Of a stretch of DNA of 64,000 nucleotides, positions 26,654 through 51,086 are shown piece after piece (within the stretch, counting starts at the first letter, position 1; each line of letters opens with the position of its first letter). A model generated the notes under the pieces. That model was not told the origin of the DNA, ran no database searches, and saw only the letters and a list, made by a program, of their open reading frames with translations. The stretch covers positions 372,001-436,000 of the forward strand of contig NZ_JAJEJT010000003.1 of NCBI RefSeq assembly GCF_021390645.1, written 5' to 3'. The position numbers and the translations under genes are program-made. This stretch comes from Paraburkholderia flagellata (GTDB lineage Bacteria > Pseudomonadota > Gammaproteobacteria > Burkholderiales > Burkholderiaceae).

Positions 26654-28366
26654 TCACGGCACGATCCAGTTCCCATCGGCCACGAGCTTGATGTGATCCG
26701 GCCCGGCAAAGCGGACGATATAGCCGCCTTTGGACGCGAACGTCTGCCCCGGCGCCAGCGTCAGGCGCGGATAGTAACCCGTCAGTATCCGGCGTTCGAG
26801 CATGTCCTGAATGCGCTCCACCAGGTAGTCCTTCACGAACGCATCGACCATATGGCTCAGCGTCTCAGCAAGCAGACCGCATGCAAGATACGTGTCTGCC
26901 TGCACCTGTGGAGCAACGATCGGAATCTGTCTGATCGAGAACCAGCCGAATGCGTAGTCGACGCGCACGCGCCTCCCTTCCGGCAAGTCGAACGGATACG
27001 CGAGCCGCGTGACGCCGCGCCAACTCGCCGGCAGGGGGATGCTATCGAGTCCGCCCATGAGGCCCGACATGAACACGGTATCCGTCGCTGGGGGGATTCG
27101 CGCAAGCGCCGCGACGTCCGGTGGACGCAGCCACAGCACGAGCACGTCCGAGCGCGGTATCCCTTGGATTGCATGCGCAACGCTTTCGCCGGGGGCAAGC
27201 ACGCGGTCCGACACCGCAATGCCGTAAGCCTTCAGTGCCGTGGCGAGCGCTTGCGCGCCGCGCTCGCCGTTGTCTCCCGCACGATAGACCTGCCTGACGC
27301 GCGTCAGCGCTTTTGCCTCTTTCGTCCCCTGCGCCTGCCGCGCGCCAGCTTCATCGACAATGCGCGCAGCAATCAGGTCCGACTCGAGCAGCACGCCTTT
27401 GGAGAAGTACACGGAATAGAAGTCGTGATCGGTTTCGACCGGGACTTCCACGTTGGGAAAGAGGCACGGCACCGCCTCCTGCTCGCAAAAATCGTGAATC
27501 GGCGCCCAGTTTTTGCCTCCGATACCCGACAACACTGCAAACACGGGCTGCCGGGCGAGAAACTGCGTAAGCTGTTCACGCCAGGTGTCCGGCGGACCTT
27601 TGAGCTCCCACACGTGCAGTTCCCAGCGGCGATTCACCATGAACATCATCTTGCGCGACGAACGCAACGGCGGCACCGCACCGAGTGGAAAGACGTTCTT
27701 GTCGGCGACGTAGTGCGTGAGCACATCGAGCATGCCCGCGCGTTTCACCGGATCGGCATCGGGCGTGATGATCGTCGCGAAGTGCAGCACGGTATCCGTA
27801 ACGCCCGTCGCCCTGCGCCGGTCGAGGTGCTTCAGATAGCCGATCAGCGCCTGCATATCGGCGTCGTTCAGCGCGTATTGCGGCATCAGGCTGCTCAGCG
27901 GCTTGCCTTCCGAGTCGATCCCTTCGCGAATGGCTCGCGCGATCGTCGCATCCGTGTACGGCTCGCGTTCGGCACGCATCCCGGGAACATAGGGCAAGTC
28001 GGCATCTTCCGTGTTCTGTGCGCGCGGCTCGACGAGGTAGCGCCAGGTGATCGGGGGGATGCTGCTGTTGCCTTCCCTGGAGCCCAGGCCACTGCGGCGA
28101 TGGCAGTTCACACAGGCCGCGGCTGCGCCTTCCAGGTGCACGCCCCCGTCGTGCATCGCCTCGAGCGGTTCGCCCGAACTCAGGATCCCCTGCTGGTAAA
28201 GAGCCTGCCCGGCGCTCCCTGTCGCGACCGGTTGCGCGGCCGGTGCGCAACGCGCCTCGCCCACCGGCATGATCAGCGCGGCGAGCAACGCGCATGGAGC
28301 AAACCATCGCGCCGCAAGCGAAGGTGCCCATGTGCGGCCTCCTGGCCCGCTTCCCGCGCGATTCAT
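26654..28366 (-). CDS. Cytochrome c fused to a periplasmic binding protein-like domain
   Basis: This 570-aa exported protein has a signal peptide, an N-terminal cytochrome c domain with CVNCH at 85-89, and then a type 1 periplasmic-binding fold (about 190-530; ABC branched-chain amino-acid/receptor family type). The combination of a haem and a ligand-binding domain suggests a sensor or an electron carrier gated by a bound ligand (inference). It starts two bases after the LolA-like gene stops, so it is tightly co-transcribed. Confidence 0.75.
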   Translation of the reverse strand: MNRAGSGPGGRTWAPSLAARWFAPCALLAALIMPVGEARCAPAAQPVATGSAGQALYQQGILSSGEPLEAMHDGGVHLEGAAAACVNCHRRSGLGSREGNSSIPPITWRYLVEPRAQNTEDADLPYVPGMRAEREPYTDATIARAIREGIDSEGKPLSSLMPQYALNDADMQALIGYLKHLDRRRATGVTDTVLHFATIITPDADPVKRAGMLDVLTHYVADKNVFPLGAVPPLRSSRKMMFMVNRRWELHVWELKGPPDTWREQLTQFLARQPVFAVLSGIGGKNWAPIHDFCEQEAVPCLFPNVEVPVETDHDFYSVYFSKGVLLESDLIAARIVDEAGARQAQGTKEAKALTRVRQVYRAGDNGERGAQALATALKAYGIAVSDRVLAPGESVAHAIQGIPRSDVLVLWLRPPDVAALARIPPATDTVFMSGLMGGLDSIPLPASWRGVTRLAYPFDLPEGRRVRVDYAFGWFSIRQIPIVAPQVQADTYLACGLLAETLSHMVDAFVKDYLVERIQDMLERRILTGYYPRLTLAPGQTFASKGGYIVRFAGPDHIKLVADGNWIVP

Positions 28367-30223: not shown

Positions 30224-30739
30224 TCATTGGACTATCAACCCGTCGACGTGAAACGACCCCACGAAAACGTCGACGCGCTCTCCGGCCTTGATCGCTCCGC
30301 CCTTGTTCGAAAACACCATCCAGTACTCCTGACCGGTTTCCAGCGGACCGCTCTGGCGTAGCGCGCCGACCTTGTCCATCACCGGGATTTCGAGCAACGC
30401 ATGGCTCGTGCGCCCGAACATCAAGGCCGTCGCGGTCTTTTCGCCGAGCGGCCGCGCCGCCGCCGGATCCGTCACGCGATAGCTGAAGCGGATCAGGTTG
30501 CCCGACGCCGTGCGGCGCACGCTCAGGTGGTCAATGCCCTGCGCCAGCTCGTAGTACCCCTTCGCGCGCTGCGGCAGGCTCGCCGGCGAGTACGGCGACT
30601 GCTTCGCCGCCGCTCCCGCCGGCTTGTGCGCCGCGATCGCACTTTCCTGCCCCGCGGCGGGCTGAAGCCAGCTAGCAGCGAGGCAGACGCTGCCGGCAAT
30701 CAGCCCTGCCCACGGCGACCGATGGCAACGCTTGCTCAT
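30224..30739 (-). CDS. Small exported protein of unknown function
   Basis: This 171-aa protein has a signal peptide (LIAGSVCLAASWLQPAAG) and a beta-rich core with SVRRTASGNLIRFSYRVTDP and QEYWMVFSNKGGAI. I recognise no family. ATG at 30739 overlaps the last codons of the 2747-aa gene (ATGA), so translation is coupled. A longer frame to 31444 on the same strand is a shadow of the large gene. Confidence 0.7.
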   Translation of the reverse strand: MSKRCHRSPWAGLIAGSVCLAASWLQPAAGQESAIAAHKPAGAAAKQSPYSPASLPQRAKGYYELAQGIDHLSVRRTASGNLIRFSYRVTDPAAARPLGEKTATALMFGRTSHALLEIPVMDKVGALRQSGPLETGQEYWMVFSNKGGAIKAGERVDVFVGSFHVDGLIVQ

Positions 30740-33700
30740 GGCAACGCTCCCAGCGTCTTGCCACCCGTCGGTGTTGTCTGTGCGGGCGGTGTGATCACCG
30801 GCAACGCAGGCACACCTCCAGTGGCTCCGCCAGTCGCGGCGCTCGGCAAGATCCCCTGCAGCAAGCCGAGCAGCGTCGCCGGATTGTTGACCCCCAGCGC
30901 AAGCGGGTACGGCTGCGATGCAAGCACGCCTGGCCGGACGAACTCCACTGCGCCGATGTCGTAGCCACCCAGCTGCGGCCGCGGCGTGCCGAAGATGTCG
31001 CGATTCGGCGCGCCCGCCGCCGTGGCATGGTTGACCGCCGGCGAAGTCCCCGGAATCGTGTAGTTGCCAAGGAGCACGTTGAGTTGCGTGCCCGTGCTCG
31101 CCTCGTTGAACAGTGACAGCGGACCGTACGACATATTGATCCAGTTGTTGCCCTCGTCCGGCGTCGCCGACGGCAGCAGGCTGAACAATGGATTCGGCAG
31201 CACCGTGTCCGCAATGCCGGGCGGCACCGTGATGCCGATACCACCCGCCTCTGGCGGCACGCGTGCACCGTTGCAGTACTGATGCACGACACCCGGATTC
31301 GATCCGCTGTTGTTCGCGTTCGGATAGTCGCCGGCGTCCGTCAGGATCGAGTACCGCGGGCTCATCGTCAGACCCGAGCCATGGTTGGCGGCTCCGGTAT
31401 CGCCGAACGCGCCGATGTCCCAGAAGACCGCCTTCGGATCGCAATAGCCCGTGGCGTGCCCGGCCTGATTCAGCGACGGATTCAGCGTGACCACGTTCTG
31501 CAGCCCTGCAATGCCCGGATCGAGTCCTCCCACTGCGATATAGAACGTGCGGTTCTGCCAGAACAGGTCATTCGTGAGCACCGGGTTCGAGAACGTCGTA
31601 CAGCTCGGGTTGCCTGCTGGACACGTCACGTTCGGGCTCGTGAATGCCGCCACCAGGTTCTGCGTATGGCGCGCGGTCTCGAGCCCGGCCGGCTCGTACT
31701 GCGACGTCGTGGTCGGCTGGCACGTCGTTTCCGAACCCGAGGTCGTGCAGTTCGGCGGCCCGACATTGGCCTGGGTAGCAGCGGAAGTGTTGAACAGCAC
31801 GCCGGCCGTAGCAGTCGTGTCGTTGGAGATGACCGTGTTGTTGATGAAGTTCACGGCCACCGCATCCTGCAGCGACACGCCACCGCCAGCCCAGCCCGCC
31901 ACGTTGTTCGCGATGATGTTGTTGGTGACCTTCACGCGATACCACCTGGAGCTGTCGTTCGGACTGCGTTGCACGTCGGTGCCATTGACGTTCTGCAGCC
32001 GCAGGCCGCCGCCCTTGCCGCTTTCCGCCGTATTGCCGACGATCAGGTTGCCGTCGATCGTGATGCCCGGGCCCGCGCCGTCCGAAAGCTGCGGCGCGCA
32101 GTCGACGTCCGTGGTGGCGTTCTCGCAGAAGGTGCCGTCCGGCGGCACACCCTGAACGATCAGCCCGCCGCCGTACGTCGGCAACGTCGGGTTGTTGCTC
32201 TGATTGAACAGGATCCAGTTGTGCGACAGGTCGCCGTTGTAGCTGAAGCCGAAGTGCGCGACACCGCCGCCATCGCCGCTGCTGATGTTGCCGCAGACCC
32301 AGTTGTAGTTGAACTTGTAGTAGTCGGCGCCCGAGCAGAACGTCACCCCACCGGCCGAAGACGGCGTGGTCGAATTGATCTCGTCGCCGTACGAAGCATT
32401 CGACGTGACCTGGTTGTTATGCACGTTGACGTGGACGTTGTACTGGAACGCCAGCTGGGTCACGTTATCCGCCGCGATAGTGCCGTCGGGCACTTCAACC
32501 TGGCCGACGATGATGCCGCCCGTGAGCGTGCCTGCGTTCGAGAAGACGCGATTGTTCGATACCTCCGTGTAGTGGTTCCAGCCGTGCAGATAGATACCGC
32601 CGCCGCCTTGCGAGCTGTTCGTGAACGACATGCCGTCGATGCGCGACGGGTTGCACAGGAAGTTGCTCTGATAGGTATTGCAATCCGCGGCGCTGTTGGT
32701 GAGCGGCGTGCAGATACCGTTCGCGACGCAGTTCTGGTCCTGTGTCAGCACGCCGCCCACCAGCACGTCCTTCACGCCCTTGCCGAGCACGGTAATTGCC
32801 GCGCCTTCGTACGCGCCCATCAGCGTCGGCTCGATCAGCGTCTCCGCAAGGTTGCCGTTGAGGTTGAAATCCCAGCCCGAAGTCGGCTCGAATGGGATCC
32901 CGTCGATCTTGCGCTGCATCGAGGCGAGGCAACTGTACGCGCCGGTCGGATCGTACGGATTGCCCGCCGAGATCAGGCCGCCGTTCAGCGCATCGCCGAA
33001 CAGGCACCCGACCTGCCTGCGCCACGGGTCGAGCTTGCCCGACGGATGCGGGTTCGCGTCGATCGTGACGGCTGTGGCGCCCACGCCTTGCAGCCGCACC
33101 GGCTTCCACATGAGGAGCATCTCCTTGTAGGTGCCCGGGCCGACGACGATCATGTCGCCCGCGGTTGCGTGGTCGATCGCGGTCTGGATCGCGTTGCCCG
33201 CGGTGTTCTCGCCGCCCACGAAGGTAGGCGCCTTGCCGCCGACCGTCACCGTGACCGCGTCGATCGAGCGCTCTCCATTGGCCGCGGTGACGACGAGCTG
33301 GCCGCACTGGGTAGGCGTCGTCACCCCGCGCTGCTGGATCGTGCAGGCCGCATCAGGACCGAGCAAAGGCGGCACGATCACCGTGATCTTCGCGTCGCTC
33401 CAGGACGTGACCGGCGCCGGGATGCCCGCGATCGTCACGACACCGCGTTGCGCGCCGAAGCCGTAGTTGCGCGTGATGAACTTCTGGTTGAACGGCGCTT
33501 TGGTGGCGCTCGGACCGGTGTACGCATGGTTGGGCACCTGCTGCGTGCCGACCGACGTGATCGTCAGCGTCTTCAAAGGTGAACTGACCCACGGGCCCGC
33601 GCCGCCGTTGCTGCCCGCGGACGTGTTGCCGGCAATCGCGTCGCCGGTCACGCTCGCAATGCCCGGCGTGCCGTCCGGATAGGCGCAGTCGACCTGGTTA

Positions 33701-36700
33701 TATCCGTCCGCGAAGGCCGAAACGGGCACCACTGGCGTATCCATGTACTGCGTCTGTCCGGGCATGAACGGAATCTCGTAGCAGAACTGGCTGTATGCCG
33801 GGTTGTAGAGCGGGTCCTTGATGGTCTGGCCAGAGTGCGCCGGGTCGGGCATGTACGGGTCGTTCATGCAGGCGACCATCATCGTCGGCGCGTAGCCCGT
33901 CGGGTTCGGCGGATTGACTTGCCAGGTCGAATAGGTCAGCCCGTTGAAGATGCCCCACTGGTCCGAATAGGTGCGCGAGATTTCGTTGCCCGCGAAGTCC
34001 TTGAACGACACCGGTACGTTCGGCACAGCAAACTTTTCGCCGAACTGCGGCGAATACGGATCGAACTCCGAAGAGAAGTCGTCCAGCATGAAGCCGGTGT
34101 AGTGCGCGGCAACGTGTGTCGAGCTGAAGATCCAGAACTTCGCCTGCACCGCGCTTTGATCGGTAAGCTCCACCTCCTTGCGGTCGCACAGATTCCTCGA
34201 AGCCCCCGCGAACGGCGAGACTTCCTGCGAGCCCGGGAACAGGCTGATGTAGTCCGGCACGATCCGCAGCTCTCCAACACACGGCCAGAAGCGTTCGATG
34301 GACCCGGTATCGCCTTCGGCGTGCGGGGTCGAGCCGAGATTCGTGGTCGGATTCTGCGCGTTGTTCGGGTTGTAAGTGGAATTCATCGCGGCCTGATCGG
34401 GCAGGATGAAGATGTCGCCGATCCCGCCGAACTGCTGCGTGACCGGTGCGATGTAGTTATCGCCGATCAGGATGTTCTTGTCCTCCTCCTTCACCAGTTC
34501 GTAGCCCGGCGGCACGATGATCTCGACCACATACTTGCCGGGCGGCAGCATCTGCGTGCCGTCCTTCGTGGGATTCGCCTGGCAGATCGTGCAGTTGCTG
34601 CCGGTTGGCAGGCCACTATGCGGATCGCGGCTCGTCACGCTCGGGAACTGATACATGCCATCGTACGGCGCCGGCTGCACCTGGTTGAACACGTGCATGC
34701 CGTCATAGCACTTGAACTGCGAATTATTCGGCAGCGCACGCTGCTGCGGATCGAGCCAGTTTTTGGTGTTCTGCAGCGTGAAGAAGTACGGATCGGTGGT
34801 GCTCTGGCCCGGGCAGTTCATGTTCGGCACGCCGTCCGAACGGAAGCCCTGGGACCAGTCGTCCCAGCTCGCGGTCTTCGTCGAGTCGACGAGCTTCAGG
34901 CTCGTGGAACCGTCCGCCGCGACGCCTTCCTGGTACAGGTTCACCGTGACGTTCGGTACGTCGGGCGTCCACTTCGTGTGAACCAGCAATGCGGGGTCGT
35001 CGAACGGGCGCGTCGAAGCGTAGACGACTTCGCCCCGGATGCCGCCATTCTCGTTCGCCGCGTACTGCGTCTTGCCGAACTCGATGAACGAGCTCTGGCC
35101 CGAGAAACCCTGCCAGCCCATCGTGGTCACCCACGGCGGATCGACGCGGCCGGTCGAAGGATTCGAGCCCGAGCGGTCGTTGCAGTCCGCGTCGTTGCAG
35201 TACACCGCGCCCGGCACCCGCAGGTTCGTAGGCAGATGGATCGATTCCTGCGTGTTCGCGAAGTTCGCGGCAATGGTCGACTTGCCGCCGCCCGGCGTAC
35301 CGTCGGGCGGACCGCCCGCGTCGTAGACGACGTGCACGCCAGTCTGCTTGAAGCGGGTCAGGTCGGTATCAACGACATACCAGTTGAACAACGGGAACTC
35401 TTCGTTGAACGACGCATAGCCGTTCATGTCCGTGTTGTTGAAATCCGAATAGCTGCCGTCGCGGAAGCGGATGTTGGTCGGCAGCAGCGCGAGACCTGGC
35501 TTGCTCGGATCCCCTACGCCGTTGCCGTTCGTGTCGAGGAACGTGCGCGTATAGAGATTCGTCTGCCACTGCAGCACCGCAATATCGCCGGCGTCCGTTG
35601 TCGCGCCGCCTCCGAGCGTGACGGCAGATGCGAGCCCGTCGACGATCTGGTCGTTCCACTGGTCGAATACCGTGATGCGGGTAATGCCGGCAGGCAGGCC
35701 CGTGAAGCTGAACGTGCCGTCCGCGTTGCACTTGGTGAGCGCGTAATCTTCGCCGTCCGGATCGCCTACGCTCACGTAGCACTGCGTAAAGCTCAATGGC
35801 TTGCGCGACTGGCTGCCGTACAGGTGCTCGTCAGGCGGACGGCTGTAGTGCAGGTTCGTCACCCGGCCCTTGAGCCCGTTGTTGCAGGTCGAGGTGGCGC
35901 ACAGCAATGGCAGCCGTGCGTTGACGATTTTCGGGTTCGCAAAGCCAATCGACACGTGGAAACCCGCCGGCCCGAACTCCTGGAAGTACGCCGGGCCGCC
36001 GATCTTGATGAATGAGTCGTGGGCCTTCTGTCCGTCCAGCGTGTTCGTCTGCAGCCACTCCTCGCCGCGCGCGATGCGGTCGGCCGCCGGCGTCGCGATG
36101 ATGCCGTACCTGCCCGGCATCAGGTTGGCGACGATGGCCTGGCCGACGAGCGGCGACAGCGTTTTGCCGTCCGACTCATATTTCGGGCAGGTCGGGATCA
36201 TGCCGACAAGGCCGTCCGGGTTCGTCGAAATCGGGCACGCGTTGAGATTGGTGACCGGATCGATCGTACCCGCCAGCGAATTGGACAGCGGCATGTTGAA
36301 CATGTCGTAGGTCATCTGTCCGGTCGGGCTGCCGCTGCCGCCGGCGTCGTCCCACAGCTTGATCTCGAAGCCGCCGAGTCCCGGCTCGCGGGCCGAGCCG
36401 AACGTGTCGGTGCCGCCGCTCACATCCACTTCGCCGTTCAGCGGTGCGTCGTCCTCGAACACGAACACGGAAACCTTTGCTGTCGGGAATGGCGACTCCT
36501 CCAGCAACACATTGACCGAGGTCTGACCCGCCGAGATCGGGGCGCCGCCCATGCCGTTGCCGCACTTGCCCGTGCCCGGCGCGAAGTTCGCGACGGTCGG
36601 ACAGTCTTTGGAAATGTCGAACTGCCGCTGCGGACCCGAGGGGTTGGCCGGATCGACCGGCTGCGGCGCGCCGCCGCCGTTCGTGAACGAGTTGTAGGCA

Positions 36701-38979
36701 TTGCCCGGCAGGATCGAAATGTAATAGCGCTTCTTCGGATCGAGCGCCACCTGCGACGGATCCACCGGCACCTGTTGCGCCGCCGTTGTCCGGCACACGC
36801 CGTTGCCGACGTCGCACACAGCCGGTTTGTGGGTCTGGCTCGCCGGATCGTAGACCGTCTGGCCTGATTCGCACGCGGCGACGCCGACACAGCCCGCCGC
36901 CACCACGGGCATGTAGCTCGTGTGGAAGTTCGCACCGAGACTCGGCACCGGCAGCGGCGGACACGTGGCCGGACGCGTGGATGAGTTCACCTGGCAGGCC
37001 GGATCGATCTGGAACGTTCTGTCTTCCTCGATGATCCAGCGGTAGTCGCTGATCTTCACCGGCGTCTTGCCGGGTTGCGTGCTTGGCGCATCCAGCACGT
37101 TGACGACGAGTCCGCTGCCGCCCTTGAACGTCACCGTCACGGTCGCCGTATTGCTCGCCGTGTTCTGCGCATTCACCGCCTGGTACTTGAACGTCACGCT
37201 GGCGGACGCAGCGCTGCCCGTCGGCGCGGTCGCCGGGCTCGCCGTGAACGAGCCGTCCGGATTCAGCGTAACGGAGCCGCCCGTCGGGGTGCCGACCAGC
37301 GTCGCGGTTAGCTGCAATCCATTCGGATCGCTGGCGTACGTGAGCACACCGGGCTCCGCGATCTGCAGACGCGAGGCGATGTTGCTCGTATAGGCGGCAT
37401 TGCCGGCCGTGGGCGGCCCGGACAGGCACCCGTTGCCCGACGTGCACGCCGTGAGCGTCACCGTCGCGGCGGTGTTCGGGTTGCCGTTCGCCTGGTACTG
37501 GAAGCTGTCAGCCGTCGTGCCTTGGTTCGGCGTGTACACGAACGTGCCGTCGGGGTTCAGCGTGAGCGCGCCGCCAGTCGGCGGGGTCTTCACCTGCACA
37601 CCGTAGACATTCGCGTCCTTCGCTGCCACGCCTCTCGCCGGGTCGGACACCGTCAGCGTTTTGCCGGGAACGAAGAAGTACGTGGAACCGGTAACCGTCG
37701 CGTTGGCCACGGCTGCCTGTGTCGCCGCGGCAGCGTTGTTCACGCTGATGTAGCCCTGCATACCGCCATCGCGCGCATTATTCGTCGACAGGCTCAACTC
37801 GCGATCGAACACCGGCAGCGCGGAAGCGCTTGCCGGCGGCATATTGACCAGCGCGTCGTAAGTCTTGCCAGCCGCCATGAATACTTCCGACTGAATCCGC
37901 GGATTGCCGGGCAGCACGTTGCCGTCCTCGGCGATCAGCGCGAAGCCGGAAATCGGCGAGGTGCCGGTTTGCGCACCGACCACCGCCGGCACGTGCATGC
38001 GCAGGCCCGCATTGACAAAGCGAAGCATCACCGGCCCCGTGGTCGCGGCGCTCGTCGCGGCGAACGTCGAAGCGCCCGGATTGGTGCGGTCGAACGAGAC
38101 ACCGTTGATGAGGTAGTAACGCGGATCGTAGTTCACCGTGGGCGGATAGCAGGTGCCGAACGCGGTCGACTTCGAATCGCCGCAGCCGCCCGGCTGGCCG
38201 GACCAGGCCAGGGTTTCGCTAAAGCCCGCGGTCGTCACGGCCGCCGCGACCGCGGTGTTCTGCACCGGATCGATTTCGCTCAGTACGAGCGGCACGTCTG
38301 TGTCGTAGCTGATACCCGGATACGCTTGCGCCGGCGTCGTGCCATTGGCCGGCGTTCTCACCACCAGGACGCCGTACAGCCCCATCGGCCCCTGGATCGA
38401 CGGATGCGTGCCCGACTCGATCAGGTAGGTACCAGGATTCAGGTTGTTCCACGAGAGCGCTGTGGTGCTTCCGTGTGCGACTTCAGTCGCGAACGACTGC
38501 ACGCGGGCCGCCTGGTTTGGCGGCGTAAAGGTCGCCCCGCCGGGCGCGGCGGCGGCGGTTGGCCACGTGGTCGCGGTCTGCGTGGGGTGCGTCGGGCTCG
38601 GCATGCTCGTCGCTGTCGTGCCCAGACCGCCGCCCAGTTGCCCGACTATCACAAGCGAGGTCGGCACGGAGCCCGGCAGGCTGTTGGTCAGATTGATCGT
38701 GAGCTGCCCTGGCGGCACCGTGATCACCACTGGCGACCAGTTCGCTCCCGCGCCTGGGTTCGCGGCCGCGCACGCGGCGGGCGCAACAGCGGCCGACGAG
38801 CACGTGTAGCCCCACATCGGCACGCTCTGTCCATCAGGCATCACGGCAGTGGTGGCCTTCGCAGTCAGATTGACGCTCGCCTGGGCGAATGCCATCTCGC
38901 TCGCGCCCAGCATTACGAAAGCCGCAATCGATACCTTAAGCATACCTAACAGGTTTGCCTTGAGTGTGGTGGATCTCAT
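30736..38979 (-). CDS. Giant secreted protein: degenerate cupredoxins, Ig-like modules, parallel beta-helix
   Basis: This 2747-aa protein has a signal peptide (cleavage near residue 33), two N-terminal cupredoxin-like domains (about 34-440) including GTHPSIQGPMGLYG but without the HxH/HCH copper ligands. Two repeat modules follow (about 440-640; GGALTLNPDGTFVYTP and GGSVTLNPDGSF), then SdrD/Cna-type beta modules (about 850-1400), an IPT/TIG-like stretch (about 1780-1900), a right-handed parallel beta-helix (about 1900-2500) and an Asp/Gly-rich end (GAVEF, then LLG repeats). It looks like a surface or extracellular scaffold carrying or holding the multicopper oxidase. It follows the 538-aa gene by 17 bases and starts after GGGGAG. 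Confidence 0.8.
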   Translation of the reverse strand: MRSTTLKANLLGMLKVSIAAFVMLGASEMAFAQASVNLTAKATTAVMPDGQSVPMWGYTCSSAAVAPAACAAANPGAGANWSPVVITVPPGQLTINLTNSLPGSVPTSLVIVGQLGGGLGTTATSMPSPTHPTQTATTWPTAAAAPGGATFTPPNQAARVQSFATEVAHGSTTALSWNNLNPGTYLIESGTHPSIQGPMGLYGVLVVRTPANGTTPAQAYPGISYDTDVPLVLSEIDPVQNTAVAAAVTTAGFSETLAWSGQPGGCGDSKSTAFGTCYPPTVNYDPRYYLINGVSFDRTNPGASTFAATSAATTGPVMLRFVNAGLRMHVPAVVGAQTGTSPISGFALIAEDGNVLPGNPRIQSEVFMAAGKTYDALVNMPPASASALPVFDRELSLSTNNARDGGMQGYISVNNAAAATQAAVANATVTGSTYFFVPGKTLTVSDPARGVAAKDANVYGVQVKTPPTGGALTLNPDGTFVYTPNQGTTADSFQYQANGNPNTAATVTLTACTSGNGCLSGPPTAGNAAYTSNIASRLQIAEPGVLTYASDPNGLQLTATLVGTPTGGSVTLNPDGSFTASPATAPTGSAASASVTFKYQAVNAQNTASNTATVTVTFKGGSGLVVNVLDAPSTQPGKTPVKISDYRWIIEEDRTFQIDPACQVNSSTRPATCPPLPVPSLGANFHTSYMPVVAAGCVGVAACESGQTVYDPASQTHKPAVCDVGNGVCRTTAAQQVPVDPSQVALDPKKRYYISILPGNAYNSFTNGGGAPQPVDPANPSGPQRQFDISKDCPTVANFAPGTGKCGNGMGGAPISAGQTSVNVLLEESPFPTAKVSVFVFEDDAPLNGEVDVSGGTDTFGSAREPGLGGFEIKLWDDAGGSGSPTGQMTYDMFNMPLSNSLAGTIDPVTNLNACPISTNPDGLVGMIPTCPKYESDGKTLSPLVGQAIVANLMPGRYGIIATPAADRIARGEEWLQTNTLDGQKAHDSFIKIGGPAYFQEFGPAGFHVSIGFANPKIVNARLPLLCATSTCNNGLKGRVTNLHYSRPPDEHLYGSQSRKPLSFTQCYVSVGDPDGEDYALTKCNADGTFSFTGLPAGITRITVFDQWNDQIVDGLASAVTLGGGATTDAGDIAVLQWQTNLYTRTFLDTNGNGVGDPSKPGLALLPTNIRFRDGSYSDFNNTDMNGYASFNEEFPLFNWYVVDTDLTRFKQTGVHVVYDAGGPPDGTPGGGKSTIAANFANTQESIHLPTNLRVPGAVYCNDADCNDRSGSNPSTGRVDPPWVTTMGWQGFSGQSSFIEFGKTQYAANENGGIRGEVVYASTRPFDDPALLVHTKWTPDVPNVTVNLYQEGVAADGSTSLKLVDSTKTASWDDWSQGFRSDGVPNMNCPGQSTTDPYFFTLQNTKNWLDPQQRALPNNSQFKCYDGMHVFNQVQPAPYDGMYQFPSVTSRDPHSGLPTGSNCTICQANPTKDGTQMLPPGKYVVEIIVPPGYELVKEEDKNILIGDNYIAPVTQQFGGIGDIFILPDQAAMNSTYNPNNAQNPTTNLGSTPHAEGDTGSIERFWPCVGELRIVPDYISLFPGSQEVSPFAGASRNLCDRKEVELTDQSAVQAKFWIFSSTHVAAHYTGFMLDDFSSEFDPYSPQFGEKFAVPNVPVSFKDFAGNEISRTYSDQWGIFNGLTYSTWQVNPPNPTGYAPTMMVACMNDPYMPDPAHSGQTIKDPLYNPAYSQFCYEIPFMPGQTQYMDTPVVPVSAFADGYNQVDCAYPDGTPGIASVTGDAIAGNTSAGSNGGAGPWVSSPLKTLTITSVGTQQVPNHAYTGPSATKAPFNQKFITRNYGFGAQRGVVTIAGIPAPVTSWSDAKITVIVPPLLGPDAACTIQQRGVTTPTQCGQLVVTAANGERSIDAVTVTVGGKAPTFVGGENTAGNAIQTAIDHATAGDMIVVGPGTYKEMLLMWKPVRLQGVGATAVTIDANPHPSGKLDPWRRQVGCLFGDALNGGLISAGNPYDPTGAYSCLASMQRKIDGIPFEPTSGWDFNLNGNLAETLIEPTLMGAYEGAAITVLGKGVKDVLVGGVLTQDQNCVANGICTPLTNSAADCNTYQSNFLCNPSRIDGMSFTNSSQGGGGIYLHGWNHYTEVSNNRVFSNAGTLTGGIIVGQVEVPDGTIAADNVTQLAFQYNVHVNVHNNQVTSNASYGDEINSTTPSSAGGVTFCSGADYYKFNYNWVCGNISSGDGGGVAHFGFSYNGDLSHNWILFNQSNNPTLPTYGGGLIVQGVPPDGTFCENATTDVDCAPQLSDGAGPGITIDGNLIVGNTAESGKGGGLRLQNVNGTDVQRSPNDSSRWYRVKVTNNIIANNVAGWAGGGVSLQDAVAVNFINNTVISNDTTATAGVLFNTSAATQANVGPPNCTTSGSETTCQPTTTSQYEPAGLETARHTQNLVAAFTSPNVTCPAGNPSCTTFSNPVLTNDLFWQNRTFYIAVGGLDPGIAGLQNVVTLNPSLNQAGHATGYCDPKAVFWDIGAFGDTGAANHGSGLTMSPRYSILTDAGDYPNANNSGSNPGVVHQYCNGARVPPEAGGIGITVPPGIADTVLPNPLFSLLPSATPDEGNNWINMSYGPLSLFNEASTGTQLNVLLGNYTIPGTSPAVNHATAAGAPNRDIFGTPRPQLGGYDIGAVEFVRPGVLASQPYPLALGVNNPATLLGLLQGILPSAATGGATGGVPALPVITPPAQTTPTGGKTLGALP

Positions 38980-38996: not shown

Positions 38997-40613
38997 CTAA
39001 TTCGATTCGTCGATCAGGAACGCTTGCGGATCAACGAGCATCATCATCATCATTCCGCCAGGGAAGATGTTGTTCGTGGTGATCTCGCGCTCGTTATGCG
39101 AGTGCCACATGAATGCAAAGCCGGCTTCCGTTTGCGGCGGATTCACCACCGTGCCGCTTGGCGGCGTCGTGCCGGTGGGCGATGTCGCGCGTATGGTCGC
39201 GTCCGGTCCCAGATAAGGGCTGCCGCCGTACCAGAAGCCGTTGGTCAGCACGTGCGAGTCCGGCAGCGTGACCGGGCCGCCGCTCCCCACCTTGCCGAAC
39301 GGATGCGCTTCGAGCGCCTTGTTGTGATCCGCGCACCACTCGTAGTAGTTCGGCGCTGTCGGATCCTGCGTGTAGTAGCCGTTTGCATCCGGGATGCAAA
39401 CGCTGCCGTCGCCGGGGTAATGCCCGTACACGTCCCAGTTCAGACCCTTGCCCGTCCAGTAGAAGATCCCGTCCATCGCAAGTCCCGGCGTCGTGGTGGT
39501 CGTGAACAGCAGCGGGCCGGCGACCTTGGTCGGATCCGTCTTCGCAAGCAGCATGTTGCCGTCGCGGGCGAGCACGCGCACGTGATTGCCGTGCTCATGG
39601 AACGGATGCTGCCAGCGGCCCGTGCCGATAATGCGCAGCAGGACCAGCTCACCGGGGTGCATGTGCGGGTTGCCGTTGTACGGCTGATTCGGATACTGCG
39701 CCGCGTAGTTCGGGTCCATGTCATCCGGCATCGAGCGCCCGTTCACCATGAAGTACGCCGGGTGATAAGGCTCCGTTTCCACGGTCATGCAGCCGGTCGG
39801 ATTCGTGCACGCATTGCCGGCCTGCTGTTCCGCCTGTGCATGAATGCGCGGATCCACTTCGGAGAACTGAAAAAGATACTCACGGTCGTAACACGCTGCG
39901 CTATGGTTGTAGGCCGCGGCGGCGTTGCGGAAATCGGGCTGACCGTCCAGCAGCTTGCGCGTCCCCTGGATCGGGTTGCAGCCGGTCGGCACGGCAATCG
40001 TGCCGGGCGACGAAGTCGGCAACACGATGACCGCGCCGTACAGGCCCATCTCGATCTGCAGGTCGCCCTGCGTGCCGCTGTAGTAGGCATGCGTGCCGGG
40101 TGTGGCGGCGACGAAGCTGTAGGTGACCGTGACGCTATGGGACGCCTCGCGCGTGAGCAGCCCCTGCACGCCGGTTGGCGTGCCGGAGCAAACCTTCGTT
40201 GTCGGGTCGATGGTACCCATGCAGACATCGAAGCCGGGAAAGAGAATCGACGTGTTGCCCGCTGCCGCCGGCAGATTGTTGGTGAGCGTCACCGTGACGA
40301 TATCGCCCTGGTTGACGATCAGCGTCGGGCCGGGAATCTGCATGGTGGGACAGTTCGCACCGGCAATGTTGGGCGGCGAAAATCCGGCCGGCGCGGTATT
40401 GCAGCCGTAGCCCCACGAATAGACGCTATTGCCGTCCGGCTGGGTGATGCGGCTCGCCTCGGCGCGCAGATCGAAATGCGTGCCCGTGATGCCAGGCGCG
40501 GCCGCATGCACCTGCATGTAGAAGAGCGCAGCGAGCGCCGCCGCGCCGAACCGTGCAAGCCGTCCGAGGCGCGCGAGGGTCGCGGTTCCTAAGCGGTAAG
40601 TGATGTGTCCCAC
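38997..40613 (-). CDS. Multicopper oxidase-like protein, second half-site subunit
   Basis: This 538-aa exported protein has two cupredoxin domains. The first resembles the MofA-like start (PTMQIPGPTLIVNQGD). The second carries HPFHEHG (His336, His339, His341) and HSHNERE (His504, Ser505, His506), then a run of Met (521-525). There is no type 1 Cys, so on its own it can supply only half the trinuclear cluster. The GTG at 40613 has AGGAGAAGAGCC upstream. It is the second gene of the operon, between the 522-aa oxidase and the giant protein. Confidence 0.8.
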   Translation of the reverse strand: MGHITYRLGTATLARLGRLARFGAAALAALFYMQVHAAAPGITGTHFDLRAEASRITQPDGNSVYSWGYGCNTAPAGFSPPNIAGANCPTMQIPGPTLIVNQGDIVTVTLTNNLPAAAGNTSILFPGFDVCMGTIDPTTKVCSGTPTGVQGLLTREASHSVTVTYSFVAATPGTHAYYSGTQGDLQIEMGLYGAVIVLPTSSPGTIAVPTGCNPIQGTRKLLDGQPDFRNAAAAYNHSAACYDREYLFQFSEVDPRIHAQAEQQAGNACTNPTGCMTVETEPYHPAYFMVNGRSMPDDMDPNYAAQYPNQPYNGNPHMHPGELVLLRIIGTGRWQHPFHEHGNHVRVLARDGNMLLAKTDPTKVAGPLLFTTTTTPGLAMDGIFYWTGKGLNWDVYGHYPGDGSVCIPDANGYYTQDPTAPNYYEWCADHNKALEAHPFGKVGSGGPVTLPDSHVLTNGFWYGGSPYLGPDATIRATSPTGTTPPSGTVVNPPQTEAGFAFMWHSHNEREITTNNIFPGGMMMMMLVDPQAFLIDESN

Positions 40614-40697
40614 GGCTCTTCTCCTAAGTGCAGGACTTTCTGGCCGAGTCCATGGCAGATCAGCCGTGAACTGTTCTTATCGAGTGCAAGAGGCGTC

Positions 40698-42266
40698 TCA
40701 TAGCGTGCAGACCTTCGTCCTGGGGTCCACCGACCTGCAGATGTGCACCTCGGTCATCAGGCCTCCGAAGTTCTCCTGATCGTTTGCCAGATGATCCAGA
40801 TTCGGCGTGTACAGGTAGAAGACCTGCCCTGACTGATACTTCGTCGTGTCGCTGGCATCGAGGATCAGATCGAGCGATTCCCCGCCACCGAGCGTGATCG
40901 AGTTCGTGTAGTAGGTCATGTCGTTGCCGGCCATGTCGCGCAGCAGCCGCGCATTGACAGCAACCACGTGCATCGGAATGCCGAGCGAGGCGAGCGTCTG
41001 ATATTCGGTAACGTCGAGATCGGAGATTCTCAGCAGCACCTTGCCGCCGACGGGGATATTGATCAGCGAAGGCAGCGGCTGCGAGAAACGCGGCACGCCG
41101 TCCGACGCAGGTGTCGAAAGCGGACCCGGATTCACTGTGTCGGGATAGCTGCGGCCATTCAGCATGAAGAACTTGTCTTTCATGTCGGTGAACGGTTCCG
41201 GATTGAAAGTCATACCTACGAAGTGGAAGTTCGGATCAAAGCCATGAATCTGCACCGGATACTCGACGTCGTAGGCGGTTGAGCCATCACCGTCGTTGTA
41301 GGCGTAGAGCGTGGGCGTCCCGCTCAGGTTGTTCGCATGCAGCACGCCGTTCTGCGGCGGCAGCGGCGTCGTGCACAGAATGTCGGTGCCGCACCGCGTG
41401 CGTAGATCCTGTTGCTGCAACACCAGCGACTGGTACAGCGACTGGCCTGCGGGCACCCGGTTCTGGCGCGGCCGCACGAAGATCTGGCCGACCATGCCCA
41501 TCTGCAGGTGCTCCGGCGGCGTGATGTGGCAGTGCCAGAAGTAGGTGCCCGCATCCGGCGCGAGGTAGTAGTACGTGAAGCTCGCGCCGATGTTGATCGC
41601 GACCGACGCATCCGGCACACCGTCATAGAACGACGAGGCATTCGGATAGCCGTGAAAGTGCACCGTATGCTTCTCGAACAGGTCGGGCCGCATGATCATT
41701 CCGACGTTGGTCAGTGTGAGGAAGAACTCGTCGTCCTCGTCGATCGCCATCATCGGTGCGGGTTCGTTGCCGTTCATCACGCCGATGTCCATGATCGGCC
41801 GCGGGTCGACATGGCCGGTGAGCTGGCCAGGCGGAACGGATTCCGGATCGGGCGTGAGACCGACCGCGCCGTTATAGGTCTGATCCGTTCTGGGGTCGCC
41901 GACGGTATTGAACACCGAGGCGAACTCCGTGCCGGGCAGGCCCGCCTTGATGTCGGCGAGGCCGGACAGCGGCCCGAAAGCGAACAGATAGGTCTGCACG
42001 CCATTGGCCATCGTCGCGTAACCGTCGCCCCCTGAGATCTGCTGGCACTTGATCGCACCGTTGACGACACCCGTCGATGCCGAGGTCTGGCCCGTGAAGG
42101 ACGGTCCCGTGTACGGCGGTTCGCCGGCGCCCGCCGCAAGCGCCGTCGGATGGGACGGCGTGGTCGGCGGGCATTGAACCATGAACGACTGGGAGAATGA
42201 GGGAATCGCAAACATCATGCACAGCAGGGCTGCCACGCTATTGCGACACATACGGATGCTGAACAT
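40698..42266 (-). CDS. Multicopper oxidase-like protein, type 1 copper subunit
   Basis: This 522-aa exported protein has one multicopper-oxidase-type domain with HTVHFHG (His200, 203, 205) and WHCHITPPEHLQMGM (His245, Cys246, His247, His253, Met258): a complete type 1 copper site plus half the trinuclear ligands. Two residues are inserted between Cys246 and the type 1 His compared with laccase. The remaining domains (to 522) are cupredoxin-like but lack ligands. It matches the C-terminal half of MofA/ceruloplasmin-type oxidases as I recall them. Start ATG at 42266 follows GGAGGT. First gene of the 20-kb operon; promoter in 42267-42818. Confidence 0.85.
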   Translation of the reverse strand: MFSIRMCRNSVAALLCMMFAIPSFSQSFMVQCPPTTPSHPTALAAGAGEPPYTGPSFTGQTSASTGVVNGAIKCQQISGGDGYATMANGVQTYLFAFGPLSGLADIKAGLPGTEFASVFNTVGDPRTDQTYNGAVGLTPDPESVPPGQLTGHVDPRPIMDIGVMNGNEPAPMMAIDEDDEFFLTLTNVGMIMRPDLFEKHTVHFHGYPNASSFYDGVPDASVAINIGASFTYYYLAPDAGTYFWHCHITPPEHLQMGMVGQIFVRPRQNRVPAGQSLYQSLVLQQQDLRTRCGTDILCTTPLPPQNGVLHANNLSGTPTLYAYNDGDGSTAYDVEYPVQIHGFDPNFHFVGMTFNPEPFTDMKDKFFMLNGRSYPDTVNPGPLSTPASDGVPRFSQPLPSLINIPVGGKVLLRISDLDVTEYQTLASLGIPMHVVAVNARLLRDMAGNDMTYYTNSITLGGGESLDLILDASDTTKYQSGQVFYLYTPNLDHLANDQENFGGLMTEVHICRSVDPRTKVCTL

Positions 42267-46282: not shown

Positions 46283-49200
46283 TCAGGGTCGGGTGGTGAA
46301 AACGTTCATGCCCGCGCAATAGCCCAACTCGCGATACGCTTCCCACTGGCTATCGGTAAAGAACTGGTCCGCAGTGGTTTGCTGGGGAAAATCACTGTAG
46401 TTTTTTGCATAGGTGCTCACATCGGTGGGCGCGCCGATGCCAACGCTCGGCTTGATGTACAACACCCAGCTTGGGCGGTCGGGCTCGTTGGAATAGGTGA
46501 TACAGGCGAGCGCGGCGCCACGAGATCCATCGCGCTTCAGCTCGGAAAACGCTCCAATGGCTTCTGGATCAAACGATGCCTTGACCCAGTCTGGCACGTG
46601 CGGCTCTTTTGCCCCGCGCTCAAAGGCACTCCATCCGGCATCGCCTGACTGATGACTCGCGCGCAAGGGGTGCGGATCGAGCCAGGTGATCTTCGCGCAG
46701 AAGTCGTAGCGCACCTGCCTCGTCAGCAGTGCGAGCGATTCACAGCGGTAATCCGGGTCCGCGGCCGCGTCGACAGCGACGATGAAGGGCAGTCTGCGGC
46801 GGATCAGCTCGTAGATGCCCGTGTTGTCGAAGTGGCCGCCATCGCTCAAATACCACAGCTTCGCGGAAGGCCCCTCGAAATAGGCACGCCATTCGTCAAG
46901 CAGCTTGGCCTGCAGTGTGAAGATGATCGAGGGCAGTGACTTGATCACGCGCCAGCCCCCGCGCCGATATTGTCCCGGTCGCCCGCCTGCTGGAATACCG
47001 CTGTTCCACCAGTAACCGATCCGGACATTCAACAGGCCAAGCAGCAGCGATTCCGCGAGCTTCGTGTTGCGGCCAAGACCGGTCGATGCGGCGGCGCCCG
47101 AAATCGCCATCCACTGGCCAAGGCTGAGCCGCTCGACATCGACCTGCGCGCCGCTGGATTTTACGAAGGCGTGAAACGCGTTGGGATCGGGCTCCACTCG
47201 GACCGCGGTGACAGGCGCCAAGCGCACGGAAGTCGTCGCGTCGCGCGCGCCCCAGAGGGCGTGAAAGCGCCTGCCCGCGCTGATGCCGGCGGGCCCGACA
47301 CACATCGGCATGCCCTTGTCGTCGCGCAATTGATTGCCGGAGAGCGGGTCGACCGTGTTATTCAGGCACGAGCAGACCAAATGCAGCGGGCCACCATGTC
47401 TTTCAGGATGGTAATCGTCGAACATGACGTCGTCGCCGAGATCGCTCACACCCACCGGAACAGGCTTGCTGGTGCCTGGCGGATTCACGCGGGCATCGTT
47501 GGACGCGCCCAGATAGGTCCGCACGAGCTTCTGCGCGTAGCTCTGCTGCAGGGAGGACAAGTTGAGAAAGAGCAGCACGCGGCCCTTCACCGCCGAAATG
47601 AGCAACGCGGCAATCACGCAGTAACGCGCAGTCGTCGGATCGAGGCCGAAGACCAGATAGACGAGCACATCGAGGAACAGGAACAGCACGAAAGCCAGCG
47701 CAAAGGCGAAGAGCGCAAGCAGCACCTCTTTCACGAGGCCGCTCCCGAGAGTCTTTCCCGCTTCTGGCGCTGGCGTCGTGGCCGTTTTCGCCTGACGCTT
47801 CAACACGCTCGCCGCGATCCCCCGTAGCAGCACCAAAACGGGCGCGACACCAGCAAGGGACCAGGTCATCGCACGAAACCCGCGTGCCGGAAGGAATTGC
47901 GCGAGCGTATCGACCACCACGAATAGCGCGGTCACGACGAAACCGAACAGCGCCACGCCGAGCAGCCGGGTCAGCCGGTTGCGTATCACGATGGTTCCGC
48001 CCTCGGGCTGCGCCGTCCCGGGATCAAGCGGCGGCGCACTCGCGCCGGATGACACGGGTTTGGCGACTAGCAATCCGGCCGCCTGCTGCTCGAACCACGC
48101 GAGCAGAAGCACACCGAGCGCGAGGGCGCTCCAGCCTCCGATGTCGGGCAGCGTCAGTCCATAGATCGCGCACCCGATCATCACGAGCCACACTGCGAAG
48201 GGCAACCACAAGCGCCAGTCCCATTTCGGGCGCCGCCTCATGGTGAGCCAGTAGCCGATGGAGGGCGGCAACATGCCGATCACGAGGAACCACAGCGGCA
48301 GCCGCCACCAGGCCGACAGCGTAACGCCGTACCATTGCGGCGGCGCGCTCTCGCACACCAGCGAAACGACGCTGACCTTCGAACAGTCGAGCGCGAACCA
48401 GTGCAGCGCGCCCAGCACGCCAAACAACAGCGCACCGATCCATACATGCACCGCCGCGAGGTTGCGCAGGATGACTACGACGTCGAACAACACGTCGTGA
48501 CGGCCGCCGCCCACGAGATATTGCGCGTTGTAACGCAGCCACTGGATTGTCGACGAGCCCAGATTCGTGAGCGTGCGTTCTACGCGGTCCGCGGGTATCT
48601 GGCGATCCTGGTCCGGCATCTCCGTAAACAGCTTGCCGAGAAATGACGCTATATAGCCGCCCCCCGAAACCGAGGACATGAAGTCGATATCGCGCAGGCG
48701 TCGCCGGCTCGCGAGCGCCTGAAGAACGCCTAGACAGAAGGTGGCGCTGCGCACGCCGCCGCCCGACAACGCGAGGCCGACCGTGTCCTCTGGCAATCGC
48801 GCGCGATCCGCATTGGCCGCCTCCTCCCATGCAGGCCGCGCAGAGTCCCGGCGCTCGCGCACCGCCTTCGCTTCGACGCTCTCGAGCTCGCGTGGATAGT
48901 TCTCCGAGTCGGCCAGCAGCACGTCGGCGGCCTTCTCGCTGATCATGAAGGTAGGAGTCACGATGAAGTAGCCCGGAATGGTCGGAAAGACCGATGTGTC
49001 GACGATGCGCAGACCCTCCACCCCATGCACGCGGAACTTGCTGTCCACCACGGCATACCGGTCCTGGAGGTCACGTGGATTCTTGCACCACGGATCGTAG
49101 CCAATCCGGCAGGTGCCGCATGCGTGATGCCCCCACGCTTCGTCCTTGATCCACTGACGCAGCGTTGGCGAGCAATCGGGTTTATCGACGCCCGGCTGGA

Positions 49201-51058
49201 CCTCGCAGCTGAACGCGCTAACGTGGCCATTGATCTCGCGGATGCGCTTGATCGCGTCGCACAGGGAATCCACGTCGCTCGTGCAGTCTTGCGCGCCCTC
49301 AATCGTGTCGTCGAACGAGTGAAAGTTGATTTCCGGCATCTGGAACGGATCACCACTGAGCAAGCGAACCGTGCCGTTGTTGTTGTTCGTGTAAGCCTTG
49401 AGAATGACCCAGCTCCATAAATTACGCGTCCTTTCGCTCGACGTCATGCTCCGGCACAGCAACTGCTGCGAATAGTCCCAGTAGTAGCCCCGAAACGCGA
49501 CCGGCAGCCCGAAGATGAACAGATCCGGGTCGCTGCGCAAACAGGCGCCGTTCGCGGACGACATCATCATCGCGAGCGCGCCGCCGTTGGTCGAGTAAAG
49601 GCCAGTCTGGTCAGCGAGCCACTGGCGCAGCATGGGGTCTTTGGCGTCGCCTGGGTCGAAGGTCACGCCGTCAAGTGTGGAAAACGGCTCGCTCGCCTCG
49701 CTGATCACGCTGACTTCATAGCGGTCCTGAAGATTGCGGCCGACGCCCGGGAGATGCACGACCGGCCCGAGAAGCGCTCCGTCGCGGTCGCGCGGTCCGT
49801 CAACTTTGCCCTTCAAATTCTCCGAGTCGCCAATACCGCTCAGCATGAGCAGTTGCGGCGTGTTGAATGCGCCACCGCACACAATCACTTCGCGCCGGGC
49901 GAACACTTGTTGCGTGACGGGCGTCCCGTCCTTGCCGGCGTACTTCGGGCTGGCCGCATAGAGGTAAGGACCGATGCGGACTTCCACGCCAATCGCGCGC
50001 GGCACGCCGCTCTCGCTCTTCTCGAACACGATCCGCGTAGCGTGCGCGGGGTTCAGGATCACGAGCCGGTCGGGGAATTCGGCCATGACGTTGAGCAGAT
50101 GGTCGCGCAGACCGCAACGGCGCTTGCCGTCGGTGCCGATCGAGATCAGCGAAACGTGGGCGCGGCTCTGGATGTCCGGCGAGCGGACATTGGGGTCGAG
50201 GAACTGCAGAATCTGAAACCGGGCGAGCGCGCGGCCGAACATCGAGGCCGCGTTGCGATTCGCAAGCGAGGCGAACAGCACGTCCTTGAGCACGCCGACA
50301 AAGGTGCGGTCGCCTCGAACGATGGCGGCGATCACGAATGGGTCGATGAAACTCGTTTTTTGCCAGCCCGCGGAACCGTGGCCGCCGGGATCGAGCTGGC
50401 CGCGCGGATCGAGCTTGCGTGCGGTCCATTCCAGAAACCTGAACAGCAGCCCCAGCGTTTTGCCAGCGAAGGTCCGGTAGACCGAGTAGTAAAGACAGTT
50501 CTCGATCTTGGCGAAGTAGCCCTGCATGTTCTGCGAACGCCACGAATCGTCGCCGGTGTATTCGGCAATACGATCCCAATCGGCATCGTTCGGGCGAATG
50601 ATGATCATTGCGTGGTGCGACGTGCAACCGCCAATAGCCGCCGCGCGCGGATAGAAGATGCCGCCCTGCCCTTGCCCATCCGTTGCCGCGCAAGGGTCCT
50701 TCGCGCCGTCATATTTCGGATCGACTTGCTGTCGCGCCGTACTCGTGTAGTGGCGCACCGAGAATTCCCAGCTCATGTCCGGGTCTTCGGTCGCGCTGGC
50801 ATGGAAGGCGGGCACCGCGTACACCTGGCGCATCTGCTGCTGCGCGAGATCGGGAGCGCCCCGCGTCATCGGCTGAGCCCGCGCATCGGGCTGCGCGACG
50901 GCGGGGTCGTTGCCTGCCTCGATCAGCAGAACGCGGCGCCCGTTGAGCGCAAGCCGCGCGGCGAGCGGGCCACCGCCCGCGCCCGATCCCACGATCACGT
51001 AATCGAAGGGCGTGGTTTGCGGATTCCTGGCTTGCCACAGCGGGTCATCGGGGTTCAT
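46283..51058 (-). CDS. GMC oxidoreductase fused to a patatin-like phospholipase with membrane segments
   Basis: This 1591-aa protein has an N-terminal GMC (glucose-methanol-choline) FAD domain (GSGAGG at 24-29; C-terminal WGHHACGTCR with His644-His645, which are the active-site His pair in the family) and then a patatin-like domain: GGGVRS at 776-781, nucleophile Ser798 in SSVSGGG, a stretch of hydrophobic segments (about 870-1170), and the catalytic Asp motif SDGGHFDNTG (about residue 1410). The fusion oxidises an alcohol/sterol-like substrate and may release it from a lipid (inference). ATG at 51058 follows GGGAGG. Its stop-start distance to the upstream cytochrome gene is short (28 bases), so the two form an operon. 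Confidence 0.9.
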   Translation of the reverse strand: MNPDDPLWQARNPQTTPFDYVIVGSGAGGGPLAARLALNGRRVLLIEAGNDPAVAQPDARAQPMTRGAPDLAQQQMRQVYAVPAFHASATEDPDMSWEFSVRHYTSTARQQVDPKYDGAKDPCAATDGQGQGGIFYPRAAAIGGCTSHHAMIIIRPNDADWDRIAEYTGDDSWRSQNMQGYFAKIENCLYYSVYRTFAGKTLGLLFRFLEWTARKLDPRGQLDPGGHGSAGWQKTSFIDPFVIAAIVRGDRTFVGVLKDVLFASLANRNAASMFGRALARFQILQFLDPNVRSPDIQSRAHVSLISIGTDGKRRCGLRDHLLNVMAEFPDRLVILNPAHATRIVFEKSESGVPRAIGVEVRIGPYLYAASPKYAGKDGTPVTQQVFARREVIVCGGAFNTPQLLMLSGIGDSENLKGKVDGPRDRDGALLGPVVHLPGVGRNLQDRYEVSVISEASEPFSTLDGVTFDPGDAKDPMLRQWLADQTGLYSTNGGALAMMMSSANGACLRSDPDLFIFGLPVAFRGYYWDYSQQLLCRSMTSSERTRNLWSWVILKAYTNNNNGTVRLLSGDPFQMPEINFHSFDDTIEGAQDCTSDVDSLCDAIKRIREINGHVSAFSCEVQPGVDKPDCSPTLRQWIKDEAWGHHACGTCRIGYDPWCKNPRDLQDRYAVVDSKFRVHGVEGLRIVDTSVFPTIPGYFIVTPTFMISEKAADVLLADSENYPRELESVEAKAVRERRDSARPAWEEAANADRARLPEDTVGLALSGGGVRSATFCLGVLQALASRRRLRDIDFMSSVSGGGYIASFLGKLFTEMPDQDRQIPADRVERTLTNLGSSTIQWLRYNAQYLVGGGRHDVLFDVVVILRNLAAVHVWIGALLFGVLGALHWFALDCSKVSVVSLVCESAPPQWYGVTLSAWWRLPLWFLVIGMLPPSIGYWLTMRRRPKWDWRLWLPFAVWLVMIGCAIYGLTLPDIGGWSALALGVLLLAWFEQQAAGLLVAKPVSSGASAPPLDPGTAQPEGGTIVIRNRLTRLLGVALFGFVVTALFVVVDTLAQFLPARGFRAMTWSLAGVAPVLVLLRGIAASVLKRQAKTATTPAPEAGKTLGSGLVKEVLLALFAFALAFVLFLFLDVLVYLVFGLDPTTARYCVIAALLISAVKGRVLLFLNLSSLQQSYAQKLVRTYLGASNDARVNPPGTSKPVPVGVSDLGDDVMFDDYHPERHGGPLHLVCSCLNNTVDPLSGNQLRDDKGMPMCVGPAGISAGRRFHALWGARDATTSVRLAPVTAVRVEPDPNAFHAFVKSSGAQVDVERLSLGQWMAISGAAASTGLGRNTKLAESLLLGLLNVRIGYWWNSGIPAGGRPGQYRRGGWRVIKSLPSIIFTLQAKLLDEWRAYFEGPSAKLWYLSDGGHFDNTGIYELIRRRLPFIVAVDAAADPDYRCESLALLTRQVRYDFCAKITWLDPHPLRASHQSGDAGWSAFERGAKEPHVPDWVKASFDPEAIGAFSELKRDGSRGAALACITYSNEPDRPSWVLYIKPSVGIGAPTDVSTYAKNYSDFPQQTTADQFFTDSQWEAYRELGYCAGMNVFTTRP

Positions 51059-51086
51059 CGCGCCTCCCGTGGACGAAATTGACAAG

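What the first reader, a model, noticed from the sequence alone, without database searches (positions are those of the whole stretch)
38997..42266. A multicopper oxidase split between two adjacent genes
Seen: the 522-aa product has H200/H203/H205 and H245-C246-H247, H253, M258, which gives a full type 1 copper site and four of eight trinuclear-cluster His. The 538-aa product has H339/H341 (HEHG) and H504/H506 (HSH), with no type 1 Cys. Known: ceruloplasmin- and laccase-type enzymes need both halves in one chain or across identical subunits. Inference: the active enzyme is a heterodimer with the cluster at the interface. I am not aware of such an arrangement but cannot check the literature.
Basis: partly seen in the sequence, partly recalled or inferred. 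Interest (0 to 1): 0.92.

Follow-up and report, generated by a model that had tools for sequence, protein, structure and literature searches.

The report
Copper oxidase split across subunits
Two neighbouring genes each carry one half of the copper-binding site of an oxygen-reducing enzyme, and a third gene carries a copper-free version of the same fold, so the working enzyme is probably a three-part complex on the cell surface, possibly used on metals or minerals.

Summary
The 522-aa protein (A, 40698-42266 -) has a full type 1 site and two HXH pairs in its first cupredoxin domain. The 538-aa protein (B, 38997-40613 -) has the other two HXH pairs in its second domain and no type 1 Cys.

It is not chance. 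A, B and the next gene (C, 30736-38979 -) run in this order in 79 of 80 loci fetched with A; in the exception, L040, A and B are broken and C is absent. All twelve ligands are kept in those 79, except one His in one MAG, and hold in relatives 40-46% identical. A and B occur in the same 29 of 299 family genomes.

The linked A+B AlphaFold model failed (pLDDT 48), so the interface is inferred. The cluster is in print (Slit_1812-1818); the passages I read do not describe the split.

The parts
40698..42266 (-). Gene A, 522 aa: probable signal peptide (by eye), cupredoxin domain 1 with T1 site and two HXH pairs, cupredoxin domain 2 without ligand pairs
41649..41669 (-). A residues 200-206 HTVHFHG (T1 His H200; TNC His H203, H205)
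   Evidence: conservation
41493..41534 (-). A residues 245-258 HCHITPPEHLQMGM (TNC His H245, H247; T1 C246, H253, M258)
   Evidence: aligned to HCHVNVNEHVTMRGM of 3g5w
38997..40613 (-). Gene B, 538 aa: probable signal peptide (by eye), cupredoxin domain 1 without ligands, domain 2 with two HXH pairs
39591..39608 (-). B residues 336-341 HPFHEH (TNC His H339, H341; H336 also invariant)
   Evidence: aligned to HAMHSHGHD of two-domain laccase 2zwn
39096..39104 (-). B residues 504-506 HSH (TNC His)
   Evidence: FMWHSHNEREITTNNIFPGG aligned to FIFHDHVDTHVTAGGKHPGG of 2zwn (that stretch scores only 0.7 bits on its own)
37690..38883 (-). N-terminal residues 33-430 of gene C: third two-cupredoxin unit with no copper ligand pairs
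30736..38979 (-). Gene C, 2747 aa: third cupredoxin unit fused to bacterial Ig/cadherin-like and SdrD_B parts and a choice-of-anchor Q match near the end
   Evidence: the adhesin-like part is a separate gene in L082-L085 and in one frame with A in L099
28369..30180 (-). Two paralogous genes (314 and 287 aa) with LolA_like matches below the Pfam cut-off; conserved downstream partners
26654..28366 (-). 570-aa protein with a c-type cytochrome domain, conserved partner; possibly MofC-like (label by analogy with PMC5566968, not tested)

Best explanation
A, B and the N-terminus of C descend from one two-domain multicopper oxidase of the homotrimeric, type C kind (T1 in domain 1). After triplication each copy lost a different set of copper ligands. 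The three chains assemble as a 1:1:1 ring of six cupredoxin domains. Domain 1 of A supplies the T1 copper and four His, domain 2 of B supplies the other four His, and together they make the only trinuclear cluster. The B-D1:C-D2 and C-D1:A-D2 interfaces are copper-free. An electron from a substrate enters at T1 in A, passes through C246 and its flanking His to the shared cluster, and O2 is reduced there. The adhesin-like part of C displays the enzyme outside the cell, probably facing Fe(II), Mn(II) or a mineral. Shown here: the ligand split, its conservation, colinearity, co-occurrence and the predicted fold of C-N. Inferred: descent, assembly, stoichiometry, copper loading, activity, location and substrate.
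Against: The only attempt to model A with B failed. No natural A+B fusion was found: none among the 360 proteins held, although only 120 of the 303 hits of the dedicated search were visible. I know of no experiment on copper content, complex or activity. A D2 still has His opposite B H339 in 47 of 79 loci. The fold match of C-N does not tell oxidases from nitrite reductases, which tie. Linked genes share ancestry, so the mirrortree r of 0.895 proves little.
Confidence: 0.78

Rival explanations
1. A and B form a heterodimer (or dimer of heterodimers) that holds the shared cluster, while C is only an anchor or scaffold and not part of the ring.
For: All ligand pairs are in A and B. In four divergent loci the adhesin-like part is a separate gene.
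Against: C-N has the full two-domain fold of trimeric copper proteins and follows B in 79 of 80 loci and 7 of 7 divergent ones. It persists as a short gene where the adhesin-like part is split off.
Confidence: 0.13
2. No shared cluster: A is a blue-copper electron carrier that kept extra His, and B binds copper (or another metal) alone or as a homomer; they act in series, for example passing electrons to the neighbouring cytochrome c.
For: A has a complete T1 site by itself; cytochrome c and CcsB genes lie downstream.
Against: Four non-T1 His in A and four in B are invariant in the alignments and sit where two-domain oxidases have their HXH pairs. The reciprocal losses have no reason under this view.
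Confidence: 0.07
3. An ordinary pair of complete multicopper oxidases whose missing ligands were overlooked.
For: Many database names call each 'multicopper oxidase domain-containing protein', and one paper says Slit_1817 and 1818 have canonical motifs.
Against: Homologous positions in the other domains carry conserved non-ligand residues in nearly all loci.
Confidence: 0.02

Closest known systems
Two-domain multicopper oxidases 3g5w, 2zwn, 3gdc (type C by recall and by the HCH in domain 1)
   Same: Two cupredoxin domains per chain; T1 in domain 1 with HCHxxxxxH spacing; HxxHxHGH and HxH in domain 2; cluster between chains in this class
   Different: Here three non-identical chains, each keeping only part (A, B) or none (C-N) of the ligand pairs, so one cluster per ring is expected instead of three
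Sideroxydans lithotrophicus ES-1 Slit_1812-1818 and the 'three tandem MCO-coding genes' cluster (PMC12016527, PMC5566968; passages read)
   Same: Probably the same gene cluster: two MCO-motif proteins and a larger one with adhesin-like and polysaccharide-lyase-like domains, cytochrome beside; the paper names Paraburkholderia among carriers; higher on magnetite
   Different: The passages I read do not say that the copper site is divided between the proteins nor that the large one carries a two-domain unit; SCO1/SenC is in that cluster but I found none among 23 window ORFs scanned; the Slit proteins were not fetched
OmpB/MofA extracellular multicopper oxidases
   Same: Extracellular, metal-linked, with a cytochrome (MofC) and sometimes a copper chaperone nearby (PMC5566968, passages)
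   Different: Reported as single genes; [quoted passage not shown] not compared here by sequence
Ceruloplasmin-type six-domain oxidases (recalled)
   Same: Six cupredoxin domains expected, one trinuclear cluster between two of them
   Different: One chain there, three genes here; T1 arrangement differs

Membership tests
Type C two-domain multicopper oxidase | Two cupredoxin domains per chain related to 3g5w/2zwn | tested here: met
Type C two-domain multicopper oxidase | T1 copper site in the N-terminal cupredoxin domain | tested here: met
   Met for A only; B and C-N lack it
Type C two-domain multicopper oxidase | Each chain carries both halves of the cluster ligands (D1 and D2) | tested here: not met
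   A lacks the D2 pairs, B lacks the D1 pairs, C-N has no HXH pair
Type C two-domain multicopper oxidase | Homotrimer with three clusters at interfaces | not testable with these tools
   The linked-chain model failed
Three-domain laccase / CueO / CopA | All four ligand motifs in one chain; family score cut-offs reached | tested here: not met
   Scores far below cut-offs, e.g. A to CopA 33.5 against 478.95; motifs split
Copper nitrite reductase (NirK) | TIGR02376 score | tested here: not met
   33.8 (A) and 27.8 (B) bits against 296.3
Ceruloplasmin-like six-domain oxidase | Six cupredoxin domains in one chain | tested here: not met
   A and B are separate frames in all 80 loci and in 7 of 7 divergent ones
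OmpB/MofA | Sequence homology to OmpB or MofA | not tested
   No OmpB/MofA sequence was compared

The most novel reading that the evidence does not exclude
An obligate heterotrimeric multicopper oxidase made by gene triplication and complementary loss: one chain brings the T1 copper and half of the trinuclear cluster, the second brings the other half, and the third is a copper-free ring member fused to an adhesin that holds the enzyme on the cell surface, where it takes electrons from metal ions or minerals.
Probability: 0.55. Interest if true: 0.85.

Novelty: new variant of a known kind. Interest (0 to 1): 0.76.

Why it matters
The multicopper oxidases I know keep all ligands in one chain or in identical subunits. 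A division of one trinuclear cluster between different gene products, with a dead third paralogue, would be a clear natural case of a homo-oligomeric metal site turned hetero-oligomeric. It would also explain why single-gene expression or annotation of these proteins as 'multicopper oxidase' may mislead, and give a testable structure for a cluster already linked to growth on magnetite.

Tried and rejected
Linked A+B structure prediction: accepted and run, poor model, no conclusion; I did not search folds with it. The first alignment for it (A1) was discarded because most B rows were aligned partly onto A; A2 was usable but was replaced by the larger A3.

Search for natural A+B fusions: none with both parts above 40% identity among the 360 proteins held, which are the top 120 of three searches. 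A 2290-aa frame in L099 turned out to be adhesin-like part + A, not A+B.

Foldseek 'pdb' search of C-N was not run; the VIA second look was.

A SCO1 copper chaperone was looked for in part of the window and not found: Pfam on 23 ORFs in all, not the whole window.

Literature: ten searches gave, in the listings seen, no title or abstract start on a heteromeric or split multicopper oxidase of this kind. One search showed 20 of 41 papers and one search showed 15 of 149. PMC3129051 and PMC8517187, which hold 'heterodimer' and 'heteromeric' beside copper terms, were not opened. The library lacks most subscription journals. Papers were read as passages only: PMC12016527, PMC5566968, PMC8218464, PMC13151041, PMC10419308, PMC10654088.

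Mended on checking: I first counted C in 80 of 80 loci; one search shows 79 of 80, because in L040 the hit was B's own paralogous match. The strict count of 78 wrongly let L040 pass and is not used.

Rows dropped: L040 from the A and B counts; L040, L046, L047, L063 and L064 from the C counts, leaving 75. The middle of the output was cut; replace it.

Full report
What is there. On the minus strand gene A (40698-42266, 522 aa) is followed after 84 bases by gene B (38997-40613, 538 aa) and after another 17 by gene C (30736-38979, 2747 aa). Pfam finds two multicopper oxidase models in A and in B, and none in C, where it sees only bacterial Ig/cadherin-like and SdrD_B parts.

The split is real and under selection. 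Of the 80 loci found with A in public genomes (Burkholderiales, Acidobacteria and others; 80 kept of 189 relatives), 79 have A, B and the C N-terminus on one strand in this order. The exception, L040, has A in two frames, B cut near residue 360 and no C. In the other 79 loci the T1 ligands H200, C246, H253, M258 and the cluster His H203, H245, H247 of A are 79/79, and H205 is 78/79 (Ser in L053). H339, H341, H504 and H506 of B are 79/79. In seven more distant loci the same three units follow each other, and in the alignments that include them these positions are invariant. Three further distant loci keep the same split.

The missing halves are truly missing. A profile alignment of A and B is colinear through both domains. 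A's HTVHFHG faces B's TSILFPG, and A's WHCHITPPEHLQMGM faces B's YYSGTQGDLQIEMGL. B's HPFHEH faces A's IPMHVV. Against solved structures the B profile matches the two-domain laccase 2zwn in three colinear stretches: degenerate domain 1, HPFHEHGNH on HAMHSHGHD, and FMWHSHNEREITTNNIFPGG on FIFHDHVDTHVTAGGKHPGG; the last stretch scores only 0.7 bits on its own. A's best hit is 3g5w; its domain 2 carries YTPNLDH where 3g5w has HDHVDTH, a weak stretch of 3.8 bits. The facing residues are themselves conserved non-ligands, except A H433, which is His in 47/79.

Co-occurrence. A and B were found in the same 29 of 299 genomes of the family. In a sample of 199 genomes of the phylum of L056's genome, A was in 12 and B in 11, 11 shared; the exception, G1010, has its A hit at the end of a contig. 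In six genomes with one to five copies, 12 of 12 A copies have a B beside them. In a thin sample of the window's phylum (299 genomes, the window's own included) A was in 2, so the cluster is patchy.

How it most likely works. In two-domain oxidases the trimer's cluster takes His from domain 1 of one chain and domain 2 of the next, and type C means T1 in the N-terminal domain (PMC13151041, passages). With three unlike chains in the order that places A domain 1 against B domain 2, one interface is complete and the two others pair empty domains with empty domains. That is the pattern seen. Electrons should enter at the T1 copper of A and O2 be reduced at the A-B cluster. This is inference: the linked A+B model had pLDDT 48 and pTM 0.41 and tests nothing.

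Role. Downstream in the window lie two paralogous genes with sub-threshold LolA_like matches, a 570-aa protein with a cytochrome c domain, a 509-aa protein with one CXXCH that may be a cytochrome-porin (by recalled motif), a diheme cytochrome and CcsB. In five other genomes the LolA-like pair and the 570-aa cytochrome are there in 5 of 5, the 509-aa protein in 4 of 5 (one at 39% identity), the diheme cytochrome and CcsB in 3 of 5 of the 19-20 kb fetched. In Sideroxydans what appears to be the same cluster (Slit_1812-1818) was more highly expressed on magnetite than on Fe(II)-citrate (PMC12016527, passages), and an earlier genome survey lists three tandem MCO genes there (PMC5566968, passages). 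I did not fetch the Slit proteins, so the identity rests on the description, which names Paraburkholderia among the carriers. A role in extracellular metal oxidation is plausible, at about 0.45; I tested nothing on it.

Novelty. The gene cluster is known; the divided copper site and the hidden third cupredoxin unit are not mentioned in the passages I read, and the ten searches listed in Tried and rejected showed no paper on such an arrangement in their listings. It is a new variant of a known kind: a two-domain multicopper oxidase turned from homotrimer to probable heterotrimer.

Noticed in passing
24885-26414 (-): 509-aa protein with one CXXCH near the N-terminus (ARQTGQSCVACHAGGQFPELTPYGR); resembles Cyc2-like cytochrome-porins by recalled motif only; no Pfam or NCBIfam hit; homologues in 4 of 5 downstream regions.
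   Followed up: partly
46283-51085 (-): 1600-aa ORF with GMC oxidoreductase domains followed by a weak patatin-like match just under its cut-off, in one frame.
   Followed up: no
51087-54563 (-) and 55401-57818 (-): 1158-aa ORF with a very weak RoxA-like cytochrome match, next to an 805-aa ORF with molybdopterin-binding domains.
   Followed up: no
L099:5857-12726 (-): Adhesin-like part and A in one 2290-aa frame, while in the window that part is fused to the third unit.
   Followed up: yes
L040:10001-12757: A decayed cluster: A in two frames, B cut near residue 360, no C; G540 shows a similar picture.
   Followed up: partly
G870 (genome of L061): Five A-B copies in one genome, hinting at lineage-specific expansion.
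   Followed up: partly
P0241-P0244, P0246, P0247, P0305, P0317, P0329, P0358, P0360: A homologues of 806-871 aa with long inserts, mainly between the N-terminal part and domain 1.
   Followed up: partly
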